64,000 nucleotides of DNA from Clostridia bacterium (GTDB lineage: Bacteria > Bacillota > Clostridia > Christensenellales > Borkfalkiaceae), in contig JAGASM010000021.1 of the NCBI GenBank assembly GCA_017621735.1, forward strand, positions 1 through 64,000, in the 5' to 3' direction. The first letter of the stretch is position 1; every line of letters starts with the position of its first letter. This document shows positions 11,699-20,559 of the stretch, piece after piece. The notes under the pieces were generated by a model that worked only from the letters and a program-made list of their open reading frames with translations, was not told the origin of the DNA and ran no database searches. The position numbers and the translations under genes were made by a program.

Positions 11699-13513
11699 AT
11701 GTACTACTATAATCCGCTCGACCGCGCTTGCAAGAGCCAAATCGGTGCAATCGCTCGCGCGAGCGAAATTACCTTTCATATTTTTCAAGATGACAGCGGA
11801 GAGAACCTCTCCGCCGATTCTTGTTATATTGAACTCTCCGCCGACGATTTACCGCGCAAACAGTATGCAATGAAACGCACGGACGATGGATTTTGCATTA
11901 CGCTCCGCATTCACCGTGTTGGATTATATTTTTATTGTTTCAAAATCGGGAATCGGTATTTTTCCTGCGGAAATTTGAAGAGGGGACGGTTTACCGAAAA
12001 GCCGAATTTATGGCAACTTACCGTCTTTGACGCAAATTTTTCCACCCCAGAATGGTTAAAGGGTGGAGTTATGTACCAAATTTTCCCCGATCGGTTTCAT
12101 AAATTTGGCGATTTGCCCGTTCCTGAAGGTAAAATTTTGCATAAATCATGGGGCGAAATGCCCTGTTTTCGTCCAAACGAGCACGGAAAAGTGTTAAATT
12201 GCGACTTTTTTGGCGGTAACTTGCGTGGAATCGAAGAAAAACTCGACTATTTACAGTCGTTGCACGTGTCAACCGTCTACTTAAATCCGATTTTTGAAGC
12301 ATATTCCAACCACCGTTACGATACGGGCGATTATATGAAGATTGACAGTCTTCTCGGTACGGAAGATGACTTGCGCTCCCTCGTTTTACAAGCGAAAAAA
12401 CGCGGAATAAAACTGATTTTGGACGGTGTGTTTAACCATACGGGCGATAATAGCCGTTACTTTAACCGCTACGGAAAATACGATAGCGTCGGCGCGTATC
12501 AATCGAAAAACTCTCCATATTACGGTTGGTATCATTTTACCGATTATCCAAATCGTTACGAAAGTTGGTGGGGAATTGAAACGCTGCCGGCGGTGGAAGA
12601 ACGTTCTCAATCATATCAAGATTTCATTTTTGGCAAAGACGGGGTTTTGAAAAAATGGCTTGGGTTTGGAATCGGAGGATATCGGCTTGACGTCGCAGAT
12701 GAACTTCCCGACTTTTTCCTCGAAAAATTGCGCGACTCCGTTAAAGAAGAAAACGAAGACGCCGTCATTATCGGCGAGGTTTGGGAAGACGCAACAAACA
12801 AAATCGCTTACGGACAACGTAGACAATATTTACACGGCTACGAACTCGATAGTGTTATGAATTATCCGTTGAAAGACGCGATTATTCAGTTCGTTTTAAG
12901 TGGCAATACCACTAAATTCCGCGAAACGATCTTTACGTTAATAGACCATTACCCCAAACAAGTTCTTGATTGTCTAATGAACGTACTCGGAACACACGAT
13001 ACGGCACGTATTCTCAACGTTTTATGCGAAAAACGCTGTAATAATAAAGAAGAGATGTCCAAAACGCGTTTATCGGACGAAGAACGTGCGCTCGGGAAGG
13101 AAAGAATGAAGATCGCCGCACTCTTGCAATTTACGTTACCGGGCGTTCCGTGCATTTATTACGGAGATGAAATTGCAATGGAAGGCGATATCGATCCGTT
13201 TTGCCGAAAATGCTTTGACTGGAACGCACACGAAGAAGAATTTACCGATTATTACCGAATGCTCGGCGATATTCGCACAAAGCAATATCCGAGCGTTTTC
13301 AAAGACGGTGCATATCGAGAAATATTCGCCGACGACGGGTTTTTGTTGTACGAGCGAAAATCGCAGTCAAATCGAGTGCTCGTTTACGTTAACTTATCAA
13401 AAAAAGATTATTCGCTTACTTTGGAAGAGGGCTACCACGATCTTTTTGCAAAAAAACCGTGCGCAAGCACTTATCAAATTCAAGCAAAGTCCTACGGAAT
13501 TCTCGCAAAATAA
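11699..13513 (+). CDS. GH13 alpha-glucan hydrolase (neopullulanase/cyclomaltodextrinase-like)
   Basis: The 604-residue protein has an N-terminal beta domain followed by a GH13 barrel starting near GGVMYQIFPDRF (residue 120). Conserved regions are visible: ILDGVFNHTGD, the nucleophile Asp in GYRLDVADEL, the acid/base Glu in IIGEVWED, and GTHDTARIL in place of the usual NHD. No signal peptide is seen, so it should act in the cytoplasm on maltodextrins released from glycogen by GlgP. The start ATG is one base after the glgP stop, so translation is probably coupled. Exact specificity (neopullulanase, cyclomaltodextrinase or maltogenic amylase) cannot be decided. Confidence 0.85.
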   Translation: MYYYNPLDRACKSQIGAIARASEITFHIFQDDSGENLSADSCYIELSADDLPRKQYAMKRTDDGFCITLRIHRVGLYFYCFKIGNRYFSCGNLKRGRFTEKPNLWQLTVFDANFSTPEWLKGGVMYQIFPDRFHKFGDLPVPEGKILHKSWGEMPCFRPNEHGKVLNCDFFGGNLRGIEEKLDYLQSLHVSTVYLNPIFEAYSNHRYDTGDYMKIDSLLGTEDDLRSLVLQAKKRGIKLILDGVFNHTGDNSRYFNRYGKYDSVGAYQSKNSPYYGWYHFTDYPNRYESWWGIETLPAVEERSQSYQDFIFGKDGVLKKWLGFGIGGYRLDVADELPDFFLEKLRDSVKEENEDAVIIGEVWEDATNKIAYGQRRQYLHGYELDSVMNYPLKDAIIQFVLSGNTTKFRETIFTLIDHYPKQVLDCLMNVLGTHDTARILNVLCEKRCNNKEEMSKTRLSDEERALGKERMKIAALLQFTLPGVPCIYYGDEIAMEGDIDPFCRKCFDWNAHEEEFTDYYRMLGDIRTKQYPSVFKDGAYREIFADDGFLLYERKSQSNRVLVYVNLSKKDYSLTLEEGYHDLFAKKPCASTYQIQAKSYGILAK

Positions 13514-13728: not shown

Positions 13729-13756
13729 TATTCGTAAAAGTGTAGTTTTGCGAAGA
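13729..13756 (+). other. dif-like recombination site at the left prophage junction (attL)
   Basis: An 11-6-11 layout: left arm TATTCGTAAAA (13729-13739), centre GTGTAG (13740-13745), right arm TTTTGCGAAGA (13746-13756). The reverse complement of the right arm, TCTTCGCAAAA, matches the left arm at 9 of 11 positions. This is the geometry of Xer sites. It does not look like canonical XerCD dif but resembles difSL of streptococci in arrangement, with a XerS-like gene nearby. Replacing the right arm by the one at 19369-19379 raises the match to 10 of 11, which I take as the pre-integration host site. Confidence 0.7.
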
Positions 13757-13764
13757 GTTATCTT
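13745..13764 (+). repeat. Left 20 bp direct repeat flanking the prophage
   Basis: GTTTTGCGAAGAGTTATCTT, matching 19368-19387 at 19 of 20 bases; the sixth base is G here and A there. By pairing logic this copy carries the phage-derived arm. Confidence 0.8.
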
Positions 13765-13826
13765 GTGCTTTATTATACGCTAAAAATTCCCCTTTGTCAA
13801 ATACTCAAACGGGATTTTTTTGGATT

Positions 13827-15041
13827 TTATTGAAAAAATTTAGGAATTTTCACGTTGTCGTAGATTTTCCAGCCTTTTAACGCCATTCTCGTGAATTTTA
13901 CACTGTCACTTGCCGTTCCAAGACAAGGAGCGGAACGGCAAGCTAACGCTCTCAACTCACTATACGGAACACCCTGCTCAAGAAAATACTCGAAAACGCT
14001 TTTTCTCCTCTTTCCTAACTTTGTACGTGGAGCGCGCCAAGGTTCACGGTTCGCTCGATGAATCATCATTTTAATGCCCTTTTGCTTATAATGATAGTAC
14101 TTATCATTCGGTAAAGCTAAAAGACGTTGCATATCGTCAGAACGAGTCAGATCAAGTTGCGAATTTATGTTCTTCCAATACTCGATATAAGCTTGATACG
14201 TCAGATCAGCGTCGCGAACTTCGCTATACCGTTCACGCTTAAATTTAGCATCAAAATACGCTTTTGCGCCTTTCTCTTTATTAACATAGCGGTAATCAAA
14301 CGCCTTTTCACCGTTCTCGTCAACGTAGTTATACGCTTCATCAATATACTTTTGCCACACGCCACGGGGAATCGTATAAAGTTTGCCATCATGCATAAAG
14401 CCTTTCGTTTCGCCTTTCATAAATCGGTCATAAAGCGGTTCAATGCCAATTTTTTGAGAGAAAAGCATAAACGTGTCGCTTCCTCTATCTTTGCTTATGT
14501 ACTTTGTGCAATAACGCGCCGTTGCGGCATTGATATGAATGCTATCGACGGAACACACACGACCATGCAGCCAAGTATCACAAAGCGTTTTACTTCTATA
14601 TATCGAATTACCGCGCTTACTTCTCTTATAAAATACGAGGTCGTCAAAACAAAAGCCGAATAGAATGACGTGAAAATGCGGACGTCCTGTACGCTTTCCA
14701 TACTCAAAAGCCGCCATATATTTGAAAGGACGTTTGGGAAACTTTGCGCGCAACCGCTTGATAAACTTTTGAAAGTCCTCTTTCTTGCCTTTGCTCGTCA
14801 TATCTTCAGGCAAACGCTCTCCGATGATTTTCCCTGTTTTAGTATCATGAATCCATTCATCATATGTCAACGTTATCATGCAATTTTGAGCGTGCTGTTT
14901 TGCTTCCGCGACCGCGCGAATAGCCCATTTGCTTGCTTTTTGTTTCAAGCATTCGGGACATGCTCCGCATTGGAACGCGGTCATTCCATAACGATAATAC
15001 GCTTTACTATATGCAGACGTTGGACGGGAAAATAAACACAT
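13827..15041 (-). CDS. Microvirus replication initiation protein VP4 (HUH endonuclease)
   Basis: This is the rolling-circle initiator that nicks the phage origin. The 404-residue protein starts MCLFSRPTSAYSKAYY, like gokushovirus VP4 proteins, then CGACPECLKQK and an ITLTYDE motif 1. The metal-binding HUH motif is GRPHFHVILFG near residue 136, and the catalytic tyrosine motif is ARYCTKYISKD with two Tyr spaced by three residues, as in phiX174-type initiators. I chose the ATG at 15041, behind AGAGGA, rather than one 90 bases upstream that has no family match. It lies downstream of a terminator after VP1, so it probably has its own promoter. Confidence 0.9.
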   Translation of the reverse strand: MCLFSRPTSAYSKAYYRYGMTAFQCGACPECLKQKASKWAIRAVAEAKQHAQNCMITLTYDEWIHDTKTGKIIGERLPEDMTSKGKKEDFQKFIKRLRAKFPKRPFKYMAAFEYGKRTGRPHFHVILFGFCFDDLVFYKRSKRGNSIYRSKTLCDTWLHGRVCSVDSIHINAATARYCTKYISKDRGSDTFMLFSQKIGIEPLYDRFMKGETKGFMHDGKLYTIPRGVWQKYIDEAYNYVDENGEKAFDYRYVNKEKGAKAYFDAKFKRERYSEVRDADLTYQAYIEYWKNINSQLDLTRSDDMQRLLALPNDKYYHYKQKGIKMMIHRANREPWRAPRTKLGKRRKSVFEYFLEQGVPYSELRALACRSAPCLGTASDSVKFTRMALKGWKIYDNVKIPKFFQ

Positions 15042-15219
15042 GAAAATGTCCTCTTTTTGAATGATAGGTTGTCCGCGAACGGGGTTCGCGAACGTGTTGG
15101 CATTGTTCGGCGTGGCAACCGAACACAACAAACTAAACGCTTTTATCTTACACGGCTCTGCCTACGCTATCGCATGAGCGCTTACGCGCTTCCTATTAAA
15201 CGATAATTGCTTTGAACGC

Positions 15220-15248
15220 TTGACAACGTTTCGCGCGTATGTTACAAT
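15220..15248 (+). promoter_or_regulatory. Plus-strand promoter inside the prophage
   Basis: TTGACA (15220-15225), a 17 bp spacer, then TACAAT (15243-15248). It points against all phage structural genes and toward a 49-residue membrane-protein gene starting at 15277. Confidence 0.75.
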
Positions 15249-15276
15249 ATAGAAAATCATGCAAGGAGTTTGTTAA

Positions 15277-15426
15277 ATGATATCGGCATTATTAGAAGTT
15301 GTAGCATTAATAGGCATTATCGCATTTACATGGTTTTTATTATGGAAAATATTTTTTGGAATTATTAATAAAACAACTAAAAACCATGATACGCATGCAA
15401 GTCGGAAAAAAAAGGACGATGAATAA
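15277..15426 (+). CDS. Small single-span membrane protein encoded antisense to the phage genes
   Basis: A 49-residue frame with AAGGAG 12 bases before its ATG and a near-consensus promoter further up. The N-terminus MISALLEVVALIGIIAF begins one transmembrane helix (to about residue 28); the C-terminus is charged and ends RKKKDDE. It ends at the stem of a terminator shared with VP1. Microvirus genes normally all read in one direction, so a promoter-driven gene on the other strand is odd. It would be expressed from the prophage but not from packaged plus-strand DNA until a second strand is made. I recognise no family. Lysogenic conversion or superinfection exclusion is only a guess. Confidence 0.6.
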   Translation: MISALLEVVALIGIIAFTWFLLWKIFFGIINKTTKNHDTHASRKKKDDE

Positions 15427-15438
15427 CATCGTCCTTTT
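15402..15438 (-). terminator. Bidirectional terminator between VP1 and the small plus-strand gene
   Basis: AAAAGGACGATG and CATCGTCCTTTT pair around AATAA. On the minus strand the stem is followed by a run of T (the A-run at 15405-15412), a strong terminator for the VP1 transcript. On the plus strand the following T-run is shorter. It includes the last codons of the 49-residue gene. Confidence 0.8.
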
Positions 15439-15441
15439 ACT

Positions 15442-17193
15442 TTACTCAAGTTCAGGAACGCTATAAACTGGCATAGGCAATTCCTTATCAATTTCAAAAA
15501 CAAACTCACCATAAAACTGATTCGTATTTTCAGACGTAACTTGAATCGTACGGTCGACTACGTCTTTCGTATTCGACTTTAACCAATTACCCGTCGCGGT
15601 TATAAGACCTACGTCAAAATCGTCCGCATACGTCCACTGCGCCAAAGACTGCGCGGACTGCTCTCCGTCGGGTTGCGGACGCATCATACCACTAACCATG
15701 TCAGGCTCATAACGATATTCCGCCCATGCTTCTTGATATCCAAATACAGACGTTTCAATGCTCGACGAAGCAGGAACAGTCGCAAACGGATTGATTTCAC
15801 GGGTGTAAACAGGTTGCTCGCCAAGATTCGCAAGTTGAGGTTGATAAAAATCCATCATCGAAAGACGGAAGTTATCGCGCGAAAGATACGAGCTATAAAT
15901 ATTCTTATGACGAACAACGCAAAATACATGAAGATAGCCATGTTCAAGCGCAGTAAATACGCCATTTTGAAACAACTGACCGCCATTTTTCGTAAACGAA
16001 AACGCAGCTAAATCGCCTTGATACGAATCTCCACTACTTGCGGAAGTTTGCGCAGTTTGATACGTTTCCAAATCACGACGCAAATGCCCAAGATACGTTG
16101 GAACATCGCGCATGGGATTTTGAACCTCAATACCAAAGAAACCCGCAATGTACTCGCGATAACGCGAACCGATACGACCAAGTTGTTCCTGCAACCGTTG
16201 AACCGCACTTGCGCGACGTAAATCTTCAACAGAAATACTTACTTGACCTTTCAAATTGTTCGGACCAAACGGAACTGAACCAGACGGGAAGTAACCTGAT
16301 GTATTAATAGTCAAAGTTCCACCATCAGTTCCAACGGCACCCGACGGAGCTACAACCAACGCACGTGCGGAAGAACCTGAAGTTGTATTATTAAAAGTCA
16401 AATTACCAAAATCGTCGGTCGTCAAACCATAATTAGCCAACTCAGTAATCGCGTTATAATTTTTAGCAGCATAAACGGGGACATCACTCGCAATAATTAC
16501 GGGCGCACCGCGTTGAGGTTGCGGAAGAACAGACGTAAAATAATCATGCGTTTTATTAACACGAAGAACTCGGTCAATACTCGTTGAACTTCCAGAAAAC
16601 CAATTTGCTTGTCCAGATTTATTATACGTCAACTTAGGTTGATAGTTTTGATCACGAAAATACTCGTTGTAACACTCGTAAAAACCGCGATATTTCAGAT
16701 CGTTCATTTGAACAAGCAACTCACCAGGAATATTGCCTTGCGTGGGAATACCATAATGGTCTGCTATCGTTCCAACACCGAATTGATAACCGCTTTGCGC
16801 AATACTCGCTTGCGTAGAAGCGTCAACCAACGTAGGCAAAGTAACGTCATTCAGAGGATTGCCGAAACCAGCATTGTCATCCTCGCCGAATACCTCTTTC
16901 CAACCGTCATAAACAATACGGTTGGGTACAAAAAATGCATAAAAATCAACGAAAAGATTTCCGATGACGGGAGTTTTCATCGTAACTTCACGAATAAGAA
17001 AGTTCAAATTCATGCGGATACTTTGAGACGGGAGCATTTCGCGGCAATAAATAGGCGTTAACTCACTTGCGTTAAAAGTAGTAATATGACGAGGCTTCGC
17101 CGTCATACGAGAACGTTCAGGAAGTTCCGTAACTGCCGCTTCAAAGCGCGTTTGATTACTCGACGTTTTAATATTAGTATATTGATTAGCCAT
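15442..17193 (-). CDS. Microvirus major capsid protein VP1
   Basis: The 583-residue coat protein builds the T=1 microvirus shell. The N-terminal region carries the family landmarks HITTFNASELTPIYCREMLP near residue 36 and VDFYAFFVPNRIVYDGW near residue 82, close to the FVPNR..W signature of gokushovirus capsids. The middle, from about residue 220 to 310, is Gly/Ser/Thr-rich and may include the surface insertion. The C-terminus ends MPVYSVPELE. The gene starts seven bases after the VP3 stop and is followed by a strong terminator. The frame is intact, which argues against an old, decayed prophage. Confidence 0.93.
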   Translation of the reverse strand: MANQYTNIKTSSNQTRFEAAVTELPERSRMTAKPRHITTFNASELTPIYCREMLPSQSIRMNLNFLIREVTMKTPVIGNLFVDFYAFFVPNRIVYDGWKEVFGEDDNAGFGNPLNDVTLPTLVDASTQASIAQSGYQFGVGTIADHYGIPTQGNIPGELLVQMNDLKYRGFYECYNEYFRDQNYQPKLTYNKSGQANWFSGSSTSIDRVLRVNKTHDYFTSVLPQPQRGAPVIIASDVPVYAAKNYNAITELANYGLTTDDFGNLTFNNTTSGSSARALVVAPSGAVGTDGGTLTINTSGYFPSGSVPFGPNNLKGQVSISVEDLRRASAVQRLQEQLGRIGSRYREYIAGFFGIEVQNPMRDVPTYLGHLRRDLETYQTAQTSASSGDSYQGDLAAFSFTKNGGQLFQNGVFTALEHGYLHVFCVVRHKNIYSSYLSRDNFRLSMMDFYQPQLANLGEQPVYTREINPFATVPASSSIETSVFGYQEAWAEYRYEPDMVSGMMRPQPDGEQSAQSLAQWTYADDFDVGLITATGNWLKSNTKDVVDRTIQVTSENTNQFYGEFVFEIDKELPMPVYSVPELE

Positions 17194-17200
17194 TATTCAC

Positions 17201-17647
17201 TTATCCTTGTGCTTGTGCTTGTGCTTGTGCTTGTTTCGCTTCTTCAACTGCTTTCAAACGTTCGTACTCAGCTTTAATTGCCTCAGCTTTAGCAAGTGTT
17301 TCGTTTACTTGCTCATTCAACGCATTCAGCGCGGTATCATCCATATTCATAATTGCTTGAATATCGCGAATATCACCGAGATTTTGCCGTTTTGTCAAAG
17401 CACATTGAGCAATAGCAGCGTTAATATCACTATGATAATCCGCGCTTTCCGCGAACGAGGCAACATATTCGGGCGTAATCTTGTACTCATGTTCTACTTC
17501 GTCATAAAACACGCCACCATCACGCTTTACACGTTCAACAAGCTTATAAGTTTCCTTTTCATAAACAGTATGAACAGGATTTGACGGACACACGCGCATA
17601 AATTGCGCGCGGTCACCTAAAATTGTACACTTTTTGCACTCACTCAT
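17201..17647 (-). CDS. Microvirus internal scaffolding protein VP3
   Basis: 148 residues between the J-like gene and VP1, the usual VP3 place and size. The region near residues 37-60 (VERVKRDGGVFYDEVEHEYK) resembles the stretch in gokushovirus VP3 that recalls substrates and protein-protein contacts; the C-terminal part (residues 105-148) is a predicted coiled coil ending in QAQAQAQA, encoded by a short repeat at 17207-17233. By family knowledge it guides procapsid assembly and is absent from mature virions. Its ATG overlaps the J-like stop (ATGA). Confidence 0.8.
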   Translation of the reverse strand: MSECKKCTILGDRAQFMRVCPSNPVHTVYEKETYKLVERVKRDGGVFYDEVEHEYKITPEYVASFAESADYHSDINAAIAQCALTKRQNLGDIRDIQAIMNMDDTALNALNEQVNETLAKAEAIKAEYERLKAVEEAKQAQAQAQAQG

Positions 17648-17748
17648 AACCGAGTACCTCCGCGCGATACGCGCACTTTATTCAGACTATTCGGACGAGT
17701 GCCACTTTGAGCCATGCCACTCTTACGAGTTACTTGAATTCTCTTCAT
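17644..17748 (-). CDS. J-like small basic DNA-packaging protein (34 residues)
   Basis: A 34-residue frame, MKRIQVTRKSGMAQSGTR, then PNSLNKVRVSRGGTRL. It is Lys/Arg-rich with no acidic residue. It ends RGGTRL, as gokushovirus small DNA-binding proteins typically end RGG-x-RL. It overlaps the end of the 73-residue gene by 26 bases and the VP3 start by four (ATGA). I infer it coats packaged single-stranded DNA, like phiX174 J. Confidence 0.72.
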   Translation of the reverse strand: MKRIQVTRKSGMAQSGTRPNSLNKVRVSRGGTRL

Positions 17749-17944
17749 TTTTAATTCCCTCCGTTTTTAATAAAAGCGATACGTCAATACTGCTTACATA
17801 CTCACGCATTACTTTTTCTACTCTTTCGTCGTTCTTGAGATTTTCGACGAAAGTTTTGTGTCCTTCTTCCGTTTCCGTGATAAAAGACACATGCAACTGA
17901 GTTTCATTTTTCATTTTAATCAAATATCGATATTGAATTAACAT
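17723..17944 (-). CDS. Hypothetical 73-residue phage protein
   Basis: Starts MLIQYRYLIKMKNETQLHVS behind a clear AGGAG ribosome site (17951-17956 region). It is mixed alpha/beta, acidic toward the end (KNEENSSNS), with no transmembrane segment. It lies between the decayed methyltransferase and the J-like gene. I recognise no family; by size and position it may be a small accessory DNA-binding or VP5-like protein. Confidence 0.6.
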   Translation of the reverse strand: MLIQYRYLIKMKNETQLHVSFITETEEGHKTFVENLKNDERVEKVMREYVSSIDVSLLLKTEGIKNEENSSNS

Positions 17945-17953
17945 AATTTTCTC

Positions 17954-18272
17954 CTAAAAATTCCATTGAGTTGCCATTGCCCAAGCAATCCCGGGGAATG
18001 ACTTTGAACGTGCTTTTGAACCGAAATGTGTACCTACCCAAGAAGGACAAATATTTCGCGTTTGGCCGACGGGAGCATAACATTGTACAAGGCGGGTGCG
18101 CAACTACCAAGTCCCATTTGTCATAGAGGACTTCACGAACATCACCTTGAATATGCCACTCAGGATATCCGCCGCTGCAACGTTGAATATCGCAAGAATA
18201 GACTTCATGACCTTTCTGACGAAAAGCTTTACACGACGTTTGGCTCTCTTCACATGCAATAAGTACTTTCAT
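17954..18272 (-). pseudogene. Decayed phage DNA methyltransferase gene (internal deletion and frameshift)
   Basis: The N-terminal frame from ATG 18272 reads MKVLIACEESQTSCKAFRQK, then GHEVYSCDIQRCSGGYPEWH and VVAHPPCTM. This matches the start of small phage cytosine methyltransferase-like proteins, including the PPCT catalytic region. From about 18080 the family sequence continues only in the +1 frame, as WVGTHFGSKARSKSFPGIAW, then AMATQWNF and a stop at 17954. That is the typical C-terminus of the family, and the stop meets the ribosome site of the next gene exactly. The middle (roughly 80 or more residues) is missing. In the N-terminal frame translation runs on unrelated codons to 17916. 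I infer an acquired gene now non-functional. Confidence 0.65.
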
Positions 18273-18274
18273 AA

Positions 18275-18898
18275 CTAAAATCCAAAATGTAACGGCTTTT
18301 CTTTTTTTGCCGCCCACATGCGCGCGCCTTCTTTCGCGTATGCAGTAGCAACGCCACCAGCAACATTGCCGGCAACTAATCCTACTAAACTAAGTAAAGT
18401 AGACATTGTTTGCACCCCTTGCTTATTACTTGCAAACTGTCCATGACTAACCGAACCAACGCCAGACGACGTTGCTTGCGAAGAAGATAAGCCACCCGAC
18501 GAAATACCATGACCTAAAGCTAGCACGGGATTTATACCCGCTTTTTTCATATCCTCAACCGCCGTTTGATAAAGAGAAGCCCTCATTTTTTCATCCCAAT
18601 CACGCTGAATTTGCGCTTCTTGAGCGTTAAAAGAGTTTGATTTATCTACAAGATAATTTTGCATAGCAAATTCATTAATTTGACTACGCAAAGCATTAGA
18701 ATTATCTTCCGCTTGTACTTTTTGAGGCAAAGTACCAAATCCACTAAATAAACCTCGATACGCTTCATTTGATAATTGAGTATACGGCAATTCAAAATCA
18801 CTCATGTTAGCACTAACTGAAGTAGAAAGACCTGCATTAGGAATTGTATGATTTTGACCCGTAACAGGCTCATCATATAAACCATACGTTAAACTCAT
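18275..18898 (-). CDS. Microvirus DNA pilot protein VP2
   Basis: 207 residues with the pilot-protein signature RDWDEKMRASLYQTAVEDMK followed by KAGINPVLALG (residues ~100-130). In related VP2 proteins this reads WQ..MSNTAYQ..V.DMK.AGLNP. An SSGGLSSSQATSSGVGS low-complexity stretch and a hydrophobic Ala/Gly-rich helix (LLSLVGLVAGNVAGGVATAY, residues 168-187) follow. VP2 helps inject the genome through the envelope. The gene is three bases after the 112-residue gene's stop, and the methyltransferase relic starts at its end. Confidence 0.88.
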   Translation of the reverse strand: MSLTYGLYDEPVTGQNHTIPNAGLSTSVSANMSDFELPYTQLSNEAYRGLFSGFGTLPQKVQAEDNSNALRSQINEFAMQNYLVDKSNSFNAQEAQIQRDWDEKMRASLYQTAVEDMKKAGINPVLALGHGISSGGLSSSQATSSGVGSVSHGQFASNKQGVQTMSTLLSLVGLVAGNVAGGVATAYAKEGARMWAAKKEKPLHFGF

Positions 18899-18901
18899 AA
18901 A

Positions 18902-19240
18902 CTACTCCTTTTTCTTCAATTGAGAACGGATAAGTTCGACGCTATCAACGACACGTTGAATATCTTCATAAATCGATATGATAGACTGTTCAACGTTATA
19001 TCGTTCCTCTTCCGTGGGCGTTTCCGTGGGCGCTTTTGCAGGCGGCGATTGAGTTTCCGAAGGCGTTTCCGATGTCTTAAATTTAGTCAAAGACGATCTA
19101 TCTTCCGAACAAACAGATCCAGTCATGCGAAATTCCTTGCGGAAATTTCCCGTGCGTACGAAGTTAACTATCCCGCTTATAAGCGATATAAGTCCGAGAA
19201 CTCCGTACAGTACTACAGTTAGAATCTCTTGTGTAGTCAT
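18902..19240 (-). CDS. First phage gene: 112-residue membrane protein with acidic/coiled tail
   Basis: Starts MTTQEILTVVLYGVLGLISL, a single N-terminal transmembrane helix (to about residue 29), then a basic stretch, a Thr/Pro/Glu-rich linker (residues 55-80) and a C-terminal amphipathic helix ending SQLKKKE. The ribosome site AAGGAGGT is the best in the prophage. It is the first gene after the attachment region and should be in the leading transcript. I recognise no family. A role in lysis (by membrane insertion) or as a membrane anchor is possible, unproven. Confidence 0.65.
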   Translation of the reverse strand: MTTQEILTVVLYGVLGLISLISGIVNFVRTGNFRKEFRMTGSVCSEDRSSLTKFKTSETPSETQSPPAKAPTETPTEEERYNVEQSIISIYEDIQRVVDSVELIRSQLKKKE

Positions 19241-19264
19241 GTGCTACACCTCCTTAAATTATTC

Positions 19265-19387
19265 AGATAACTGCTTCGCAAAACTATCTTTTTGAAAAGA
19301 GTTCGCGCACTTACAGAACAATCGACAAAAAGAAAAGCACGCTGAACTCTTCTCAAAAGTCTTTAACGTTTTACGAAGAGTTATCTT
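19265..19387. other. Right attachment region with nested inverted repeats (attR, contains most of attP)
   Basis: The outer arm 19265-19284 (AGATAACT, extra G, CTTCGCAAAAC) is the inverted copy of the 20 bp repeat at 19368-19387 (one extra mismatch) and, with only the bulged G, of 13745-13763. The inner arms are TTTTGAAAAGAGTTC (19290-19304) and GAACTCTTCTCAAAA (19344-19358), 14 of 15 paired, with a 39-base loop. Unpaired centres are 19285-19289 and 19359-19367. At the junction itself the arms are separated by 10 bp, so attR is not a normal 11-6-11 Xer site. Confidence 0.75.
19368..19387 (+). repeat. Right 20 bp direct repeat flanking the prophage
   Basis: GTTTTACGAAGAGTTATCTT. It carries A at the one position where the left copy has G, and this A restores symmetry with the host left arm at 13729-13739. 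Confidence 0.8.
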
Positions 19388-19458: not shown

Positions 19459-19500
19459 ACTATTCGTAAAATTGACATCTCTCTTCTATCGTGTTATAAT
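19459..19500 (+). promoter_or_regulatory. Promoter of the XerS-like gene with an abutting dif half-site
   Basis: TTGACA (19472-19477), 17 bp, TATAAT (19495-19500): a full consensus promoter. Immediately upstream and touching the -35, ACTATTCGTAAAA (19459-19471) repeats exactly the left arm of the dif-like site (13727-13739). The ATG at 19507 is where transcription should begin, so the mRNA is probably leaderless. Binding of the recombinase to the half-site could repress its own gene. Confidence 0.75.
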
Positions 19501-19506
19501 ATTGTC

Positions 19507-20559
19507 ATGAAGAAGCAATCAAATTATTACGTAGAACGAAATTTAAAAAATCTTGATCGCATTGATGAACTCTTAAATGAACTACCCTATTTTTGTGAAG
19601 ATTATTTGCGAGGCGTTGAAAACCGTACGAGTCCCCTCACACGGTTAAACTACGTCTACGATTTGCGCATCTTTTTTGATTTTCTCACAAAAAAGAAATT
19701 TCGCTCAAAGCAAGTTCAAGAAATAACGTTAGAAGATTTAGAACGCGTTACGGATACGGACGTCGAGATCTATTTGAGTTATCTTTCAAACTACACCTTT
19801 CAAGGCAAACGCCTTTCTTGCAACGAACGGGCAAAAGCGCGAAAACTCTCCTCTCTCCGTGCGATATTCAAGTACTTTTTTAACAAGGGCTTAATTGAAG
19901 TCAATCATACGGCAAAAGTCCCCACCCCCAAGTTGCATGACAAAGAAATTATCCGTTTGGAAGGAAACGAAGTTTCTACGCTGATTCATACTGCGGAAAT
20001 GGGCAACGGACTTTCGCGCCACGCAAGCGGATATCACAATAAAACTCGGGTGCGCGATACGGCAATTATTACCCTCTTTCTCGGCACGGGAATCCGTATT
20101 TCCGAACTCGTCGGGTTAAACGACGAGAGTATTGATTTTTCAAACTCCTCTTTCGTCGTTACGCGAAAAGGCGGAAATCAATCAATTTTATATTTTTCGG
20201 AGGAAGTTGGCGAAGCGCTTGCCGCCTATCTTGCGCAAAAGGAAGAAGATCCCCTCGTTCCGCCTGATGAACACGCGCTCTTCCTTTCGATGCAATACCG
20301 TAGAATTACTGTACGAGCGGTGGAAAATCTCGTCAAAAAATATGCAAAAATCGTTACTCCGTTAAAGAAAATTACCCCACACAAGCTGCGCTCCACGTAC
20401 GGTACGAATCTTTACCGAGAAACGGGCGATATTTATATTGTAGCGGACGTTCTCGGGCATCGGGACGTAAATACAACGCGAAAACACTATGCCGCAATTA
20501 CCGAGGACAACCGTCGCGCGGTTGCAAATAAGGTTAAATTGCGGAAAGACGACGAATAA
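19507..20559 (+). CDS. XerS-like tyrosine recombinase
   Basis: 350 residues with an N-terminal SAM-like core-binding domain (MPYFCEDYL-type start at residue 25, LNYVYDLRIFFDFL near 44) and a catalytic domain. The catalytic set is visible: Arg in GTGIRISEL (near 200), Lys in VTRKGGNQS, HKLRSTYG (near 298), and LGHRDVNTTRKHY with the Tyr nucleophile near 328. Length and N-terminal pattern resemble streptococcal XerS more than XerC/XerD (~300 residues). Like XerS it lies next to a dif-like palindrome. I infer that it resolves chromosome dimers and served the phage as integrase. It is outside the repeats and on the opposite strand from the phage genes, so it is host-encoded. Confidence 0.8.
   Translation: MKKQSNYYVERNLKNLDRIDELLNELPYFCEDYLRGVENRTSPLTRLNYVYDLRIFFDFLTKKKFRSKQVQEITLEDLERVTDTDVEIYLSYLSNYTFQGKRLSCNERAKARKLSSLRAIFKYFFNKGLIEVNHTAKVPTPKLHDKEIIRLEGNEVSTLIHTAEMGNGLSRHASGYHNKTRVRDTAIITLFLGTGIRISELVGLNDESIDFSNSSFVVTRKGGNQSILYFSEEVGEALAAYLAQKEEDPLVPPDEHALFLSMQYRRITVRAVENLVKKYAKIVTPLKKITPHKLRSTYGTNLYRETGDIYIVADVLGHRDVNTTRKHYAAITEDNRRAVANKVKLRKDDE

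What the first reader, a model, noticed from the sequence alone, without database searches (positions are those of the whole stretch)
19265..19387. Folded dif-like attP: nested inverted repeats in the phage attachment region
When the phage circle is rebuilt (19265-19367 joined to 13745-13763), 19265-19284 pairs with 13745-13763 over 19 bp with a single bulged G. Inside, 19290-19304 pairs with 19344-19358 (14 of 15 bp, 39-base loop). Between these stems lie unpaired stretches (5 and 9 bases). The double-stranded form therefore has no ordinary site, but a single strand would fold into arm, unpaired centre, arm, the shape of a Xer site. CTXphi of Vibrio uses this trick for ssDNA integration (established). 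I know of none for microviruses; novelty is inference.
Basis: partly seen in the sequence, partly recalled or inferred. Interest (0 to 1): 0.9.

Follow-up and report, generated by a model that had tools for sequence, protein, structure and literature searches.

The report
Folded single-strand phage attachment site
A tiny single-stranded-DNA phage of gut Clostridia carries a sequence that folds back on itself to imitate the host's chromosome-resolution site (dif), which very probably lets the host's own recombinase insert the incoming single-stranded genome into the chromosome, as the cholera-toxin phage does.

Summary
A gokushovirus-like microvirus prophage (13745-19367) sits in the chromosomal dif, at the GC-skew switch and just upstream of a XerS-like recombinase gene. 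Its rebuilt attP holds two inverted dif-like copies: one with a 10-nt centre, where the junction lies, and one with the normal 6-nt centre. On one strand they pair into arm / unpaired centre / arm.

The same architecture is present in two other prophages (L080, L065), in six circular microvirus genomes and in one inovirus (L316). The six circular genomes show compensatory changes (covariation 0.156 against 0.059 shuffled, 0/500). A covariance model built only from them finds the window site (E=7e-7), L080 and L065, always best on the gene-sense (virion) strand. In 297 genomes of the order it finds only the window's own site. In all three prophages the junction is at the long-centre copy, as one exchange on the virion strand of a folded site predicts. 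Other clostridial microviruses have one ordinary site.

Best reading: CTXphi-like integration of folded single-stranded DNA by a single XerS-like recombinase. Folding and junctions are shown; single-strand use is inferred. Krupovic & Forterre (2011) had noted a second dif-like site in some Bacteroidetes microvirus proviruses.

The parts
13745..19367 (-). microvirus (gokushovirus-like) prophage, 5623 bp, genes on - strand, so virion strand = reverse complement of the window
   Evidence: MCP 15442-17193 Pfam Phage_F 322 bits; Rep 13827-15131 REP_ORF2-G2P 65 bits; pilot protein 18275-18898 PHROGs; flanked by dif halves
13730..13755 (.). attL: host arm ATTCGTAAAA + 6-bp host centre gtgtag + phage arm TTTTGCGAAG; reconstitutes a dif with canonical spacing
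   Evidence: direct reading; 25 of 25 empty dif sites in the genus have a 6-bp centre
19349..19378 (.). attR: phage inner arm TCTCAAAA + long centre gtctttaacg (19359-19368) + host arm TTTTACGAAG (19369-19378), host dif flank continuing to 19387
   Evidence: direct reading; same arrangement in L080 and L065
19265..19284 (-). outer arm, 3' side of the hairpin on the virion strand; pairs with 13745-13763; carries the one extra (extrahelical) base
   Evidence: the same bulge (after TTTTGCGAAN) in L186, L354, L355, L356, L358 and L316
13745..13763 (-). outer arm, 5' side on the virion strand (AGATAACTCTTCGCAAAAC), inferred cleaved arm
19290..19304 (-). inner arm, 3' side on the virion strand
19344..19358 (-). 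inner arm, 5' side on the virion strand
19274..19299 (.). second duplex dif-like copy with 6-bp centre CTTCGCAAAA-ctatct-TTTTGAAAAG, intact inside the prophage and not used for the junction
   Evidence: equivalent unused 6-bp copies in L080 and L065
19507..20559 (+). XerS-like single tyrosine recombinase (350 aa) of the host, dif-linked
   Evidence: NCBIfam XerS 204.8 bits (cut-off 267), XerC 158, XerD 143 bits; no second XerC/D-grade gene in the genome; orthologue in 58 of 61 relatives searched
19462..19477 (+). dif half-site ATTCGTAAAA abutting the TTGACA -35 box of the recombinase promoter
   Evidence: conserved in 17 of 28 relatives by a strict pattern

Best explanation
This is a CTXphi-type folded attachment site in a microvirus. 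SHOWN: the phage carries two dif-like copies in inverted orientation about 60 nt apart. On the virion strand they pair into outer arm / asymmetric unpaired centre (9-10 nt on the 5' side, 5-6 nt on the 3' side) / inner arm. The host dif has a 6-bp centre. attL keeps the host's 6-bp centre and attR holds the phage's 10-nt centre. INFERRED: after infection the circular single-stranded genome folds and the arms imitate one dif site. The host's single XerS-like recombinase pairs it with chromosomal dif, cuts both after 5'-TTCGYAAAA on the virion strand and the matching host strand, and exchanges this one strand. The second exchange is blocked because the centres are unlike, and the junction is resolved by host replication. 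The resulting prophage leaves a good dif at attL and a long-centred attR, so Xer excision should be poor or absent, as for CTXphi.
For: Position at the dif: GC skew changes sign at the prophage, empty dif AACTATTCGTAAAA-N6-TTTTGCGAATAGTT lies in the same gap in relatives, recombinase gene adjacent. Fold: z -3.8 to -9.3 in nine attPs, 0/300 shuffles each. Covariation among six circular phages: 98.8% of cells paired, 4 pairs with double changes, score 0.156 against 0.059 shuffled (0/500) and at most 0.027 when slid; one inner pair is G-C, A-T and T-A in different phages. Model from those six finds the three prophage sites it was not built from (E 2.6e-8, 1.4e-7, 6.8e-7) and only the window's own site in 297 genomes. 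Strand: in the six clade members and L065 the model scores far higher on the gene-sense strand (79-107 against 34 or less; 46 against 25); 8 of 9 fold energies favour it and the ninth is equal. Junction at the long-centre copy in 3 of 3 prophages although a 6-bp copy lies beside it. Same fold and polarity in an inovirus.
Against: No experiment: single-strand use is not shown. Energies of the two strands differ by only 1-4 kcal/mol, so a cruciform extruded from duplex DNA is not excluded. difSL of XerS has an 11-bp central region (PMC5357621), so a long centre may be tolerated by this enzyme class. The exact cleavage base cannot be fixed within the shared GTTTT. Only three integrated examples; four microvirus lineages at most.
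Confidence: 0.82

Rival explanations
1. Duplex integration: the long-centre copy is an ordinary double-stranded attP (VGJphi- or gokushovirus-like) and the hairpin is by-product of two nearby dif-like copies.
For: Enterobacterial gokushoviruses integrate with one dif motif in a double-stranded model (PMC7062461); several clostridial microviruses here have one canonical site (L083, L085, L087); difSL has an 11-bp centre.
Against: Host dif centre is 6 bp in 25 of 25 relatives yet the junction copy has 9-10; the 6-bp copy beside it is unused in 3 of 3; inner arms covary although a duplex would not need them to pair with each other; virion-strand bias.
Confidence: 0.1
2. The folded form is right, but it is a cruciform extruded from the supercoiled replicative form, or the strand displaced in rolling-circle replication, rather than the infecting virion strand.
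For: Both strands fold nearly as well; the phage encodes a rolling-circle Rep.
Against: G.T wobbles sit on the virion strand at the same inner-arm position in three lineages, which would be A.C mismatches on the other strand. This favours the virion strand but does not tell incoming from displaced copies.
Confidence: 0.25
3. The hairpin serves replication, packaging or transcription termination, and its likeness to dif is incidental.
For: It lies in the intergenic region next to Rep in most carriers and intergenic hairpins are common in microviruses.
Against: The arms are host dif arms, the prophage junctions fall exactly in it in 3 of 3 cases, related phages with similar genes lack it (L359-L365), and stems are A+T-rich without a T-run.
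Confidence: 0.03

Closest known systems
CTXphi attP(+) of Vibrio cholerae (Inoviridae; PMC4246890)
   Same: Two inverted dif-like copies close together (about 90 bp apart in CTXphi, about 60 nt here), one with an extended centre (12 bp there, 10 here), one with 5-7 bp (6 here); folds on the + strand; no phage integrase; junction as expected from one strand exchange.
   Different: Microvirus, not inovirus; host has a single XerS-like recombinase instead of XerC+XerD; dif arms are palindromic; a one-base extrahelical base in the outer arm.
Gokushovirus prophages of enterobacteria (EC6098; PMC7062461)
   Same: Microviridae integrated at dif by host Xer, no integrase.
   Different: One dif motif, double-stranded model, continuing excision; no folded double site described.
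Bacteroidetes microvirus proviruses BMV1-7 (PMC3091885)
   Same: Microviridae at dif; BMV4-6 have a second dif-like sequence near one end, which the authors compared with CTXphi.
   Different: Other host phylum, XerC/XerD hosts; no fold, covariation or strand analysis in the passages read.
XerS/difSL of streptococci and lactococci (PMC5357621)
   Same: Single recombinase about 350 aa, gene next to its dif site.
   Different: NCBIfam XerS cut-off not reached; dif here is symmetric with a 6-bp gap between arms, difSL is asymmetric with an 11-bp centre.
Integron attC sites (own knowledge)
   Same: Folded single-strand substrate of a tyrosine recombinase with extrahelical bases and one strand exchange.
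   Different: attC is recombined by IntI, not by a dif-resolving Xer enzyme; no sequence relation tested.

Membership tests
CTXphi-type folded attP | two dif-like copies in inverted orientation, one with a long centre and one with about 6 bp | tested here: met
   10 and 6 in window, 9 and 6 in L080, 10 and 6 in L065, 8-10 and 6-7 in six circular phages
CTXphi-type folded attP | single strand folds into paired arms around an unpaired centre | tested here: met
   fold z-scores and covariation
CTXphi-type folded attP | integration at chromosomal dif with junctions of one strand exchange at the folded site | tested here: met
   attL keeps host 6-bp centre, attR holds phage long centre in window, L080, L065; GC-skew switch
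CTXphi-type folded attP | no phage-encoded integrase | tested here: met
   no integrase hit among phage proteins tested
CTXphi-type folded attP | host XerC plus XerD, XerC catalysis alone | tested here: not met
   one XerS-like enzyme; no second XerC/D-grade gene in a 95.6% complete genome
CTXphi-type folded attP | + single strand is the integrating form in vivo, junction resolved by replication | not testable with these tools
   needs strand-specific delivery assay
Microviridae, Gokushovirinae-like | F/VP1 capsid protein, gokushovirus-type Rep, pilot protein | tested here: met
   Phage_F 322 bits, REP_ORF2-G2P 65 bits, PHROG pilot families
XerS | score above the NCBIfam equivalog cut-off | tested here: not met
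   204.8 against 267 bits, best family nevertheless
XerS | gene adjacent to its dif site, single Xer recombinase | tested here: met

The most novel reading that the evidence does not exclude
Folded single-strand dif mimics are a recurrent integration strategy of unrelated ssDNA phages (at least three microvirus lineages and an inovirus) in Clostridia with one symmetric dif and one XerS-like recombinase, and a conserved extrahelical base in the outer arm together with the asymmetric centre tells the enzyme which strand to cut, as extrahelical bases do in integron attC sites.
Probability: 0.45. Interest if true: 0.82.

Novelty: new variant of a known kind. Interest (0 to 1): 0.72.

Why it matters
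Single-strand integration through a folded attP is established for CTXphi and its inovirus relatives and was only hinted at for microviruses in 2011. Here it has comparative support (compensatory changes, strand bias, junction position) in Microviridae, the commonest ssDNA phages of the gut, and in hosts with one recombinase. It would explain how integrase-less microviruses lysogenise Clostridia without simply being cut out again, and it gives a simpler one-enzyme system in which to study how a tyrosine recombinase tells strands apart on folded DNA. The covariance model gives a way to predict temperate microviruses from metagenomes.

Tried and rejected
A generic search for nested inverted repeats without the dif arms gave many unspecific hits. 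Three of the IMG/VR pattern scans returned mostly unrelated contigs, including tailed phages; only L065/L351 and L316 proved real. The exact pattern in 396 genomes of the order gave one unrelated hit. The eight closest MCP relatives of the window phage and L080 (L149-L156, 45-50% MCP identity) carry no recognisable folded site. L168/L158, adjacent to serS, first looked like a decayed hairpin but is a single-site phage. An alignment across all lineages (A2) was misregistered by one base at the long centre and was not used for counting; counts rest on the six-member clade alignment A1. I considered that attL's centre might be phage DNA: rejected, because then the host dif would have a 10-bp centre, unlike all 25 relatives.

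Full report
WHAT IS THERE. The window lies in a 1.78 Mb, 95.6% complete genome assembly; the order's named relatives among matched records are Clostridia and Christensenella. Between a neopullulanase-like gene (11699-13513) and a tyrosine-recombinase gene (19507-20559) sits a microvirus prophage with all recognised phage genes on the - strand: Rep 13827-15131, major capsid protein 15442-17193 (Phage_F, 322 bits), pilot protein 18275-18898. By established knowledge of Microviridae the virion strand is the gene-sense strand, here the reverse complement of the window. GC skew is positive to the left and negative to the right of the prophage, as at a replication terminus.

THE HOST SITE. In relatives of the same genus the same gap holds AACTATTCGTAAAA-N6-TTTTGCGAATAGTT; the centre is 6 bp in 25 of 25 sites, while its sequence varies. 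This is the host dif: palindromic arms, terminus position, recombinase gene next to it. The enzyme scores best with XerS (204.8 bits, below the 267 cut-off), and the genome has no second gene of XerC/D grade, only weaker integrase-like hits. So this is a single-recombinase, XerS-like system.

JUNCTIONS. attL reads ATTCGTAAAA-gtgtag-TTTTGCGAAG (13730-13755) and attR TCTCAAAA-gtctttaacg-TTTTACGAAG (to 19378). The 6-bp centre at attL is therefore host and the 10-nt centre at attR is phage. Read on the virion strand, this is one exchange after 5'-TTCGYAAAA: host arm joined to phage centre, phage arm joined to host centre. The shared GTTTT leaves the exact cut base open. The rebuilt attP contains this long-centre copy and, inverted, a second copy with a 6-bp centre (19274-19299).

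THE FOLD. Energies: -31.2 kcal/mol on the virion strand, -27.9 on the complement, both beyond all 300 shuffles.

RELATIVES. (a) G117 (L080), same genus, different gene order, MCP 44% identical: prophage in the same gap; attL centre 6, attR centre 9, a 17-bp outer stem, and an unused 6-bp copy. (b) L065, an IMG/VR contig with its own XerS-like gene (57%), MCP 34% identical: long centre gtttatcagt at one end, host centre gcatag at the other, unused copy with centre aagggc; genes run toward the recombinase gene, the opposite orientation to the window. (c) Six circular genomes from rodent and marmot faeces (L186, L354-L358), fold directly after Rep. (d) An inovirus contig, L316, with a Zot-family protein: AACTATTCGCAAAA-gtggatatcg-TTTGCGAATAGTTG ... 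CAACTATTACGCAAAA-tatata-TTTTGCGAAT[C]AGTTTG. In every case the long centre is on the 5' side of the gene-sense strand. An extra base after TTTTGCGAAN on the 3' side is present in the window, five of the six circular phages (displaced in L357) and L316; it is absent in L080 and L065.

STATISTICS. On the six-member alignment 98.8% of cells pair, four pairs change on both sides, and covariation is 0.156 against 0.059 shuffled and at most 0.027 slid. Examples: inner pair G-C / A-T / T-A; upper stem TACTTAC/GTAAGTA in L186 against TAGTTGC/GCAACTA in its close relative L354. The covariance model from these six finds L080 (2.6e-8), L065 (1.4e-7) and the window (6.8e-7), and scores single-site phages at 18-27 bits; in 297 genomes only the window's site passes. 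A capsid tree puts the folded site in at least three separate places, with single-site phages between (three changes forced), so it has been gained, lost or exchanged repeatedly.

MECHANISM. Shown: two inverted dif mimics, the fold, its conservation, junctions at the long-centre copy in 3 of 3 prophages. Inferred: the folded virion strand is the substrate; one strand is exchanged by the XerS-like enzyme; replication finishes the job; excision is disfavoured because attR has a 10-nt centre. This is the published CTXphi scheme (PMC4246890), where attP1 has a 12-bp and attP2 a 5-7-bp centre. The base just after TTCGYAAAA matches between phage and host strand in all three prophages (C, G, G), and in the window and L065 only the observed orientation gives this match; numbers are too small to press.

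LIMITS. No experiment. Three prophages. XerS sites with an 11-bp centre exist (PMC5357621), so the duplex route is unlikely but not excluded. A cruciform is not excluded. Genomes are metagenome assemblies.

NOVELTY. Microvirus integration at dif is known (PMC3091885, PMC7062461), and a CTX-like second dif in BMV4-6 was remarked on in 2011. I found no paper in the library that describes a folded attP with comparative support in microviruses, or one for a single-recombinase host. Hence new variant of a known kind.

Noticed in passing
window 19459-19477: A dif half-site (ACTATTCGTAAAA) abuts the TTGACA -35 box of the recombinase promoter and is conserved in at least 17 of 28 relatives: a likely autoregulatory operator of the XerS-like gene.
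   Followed up: partly
window 15220-15426 (+): A 49-aa ORF (15277-15426) antisense to all other phage genes, between Rep and capsid genes, with one predicted hydrophobic stretch, TTGACA-17-TACAAT and AAGGAG before its ATG; no Pfam hit. Unusual for a microvirus; perhaps expressed in the prophage.
   Followed up: no
window 17916-18317 (-): ORF whose start resembles a phage DNA-methyltransferase family (phrog_757, E 1.3e-21) but is matched only over about 65 residues: a truncated gene in a 5.6-kb phage.
   Followed up: no
L081 2600-2820, L097 about 1100-1230, L003 upstream of the recombinase gene: A stretch next to the capsid gene of the G008 prophage recurs in host intergenic DNA between dif and the recombinase gene of other strains: possible remnants of earlier dif-integrated elements.
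   Followed up: no
L316 1-185: An inovirus, probably of Clostridia with this dif type, has the same folded attP with a very strong extra stem in the loop (z -13.5); a CTX-type site outside Vibrio relatives.
   Followed up: partly
L186, L354, L355, L356, L357, L358, L080: The 5' side of the inner stem holds a conserved unpaired insert (AAAG...GCGGTAG) shared by the circular clade and the G117 prophage; role unknown.
   Followed up: no
L082, L168: In another family of the order the dif-integrated microviruses lie on the far side of serS, about 2-4 kb from the recombinase gene, so dif-xer linkage is looser there.
   Followed up: partly
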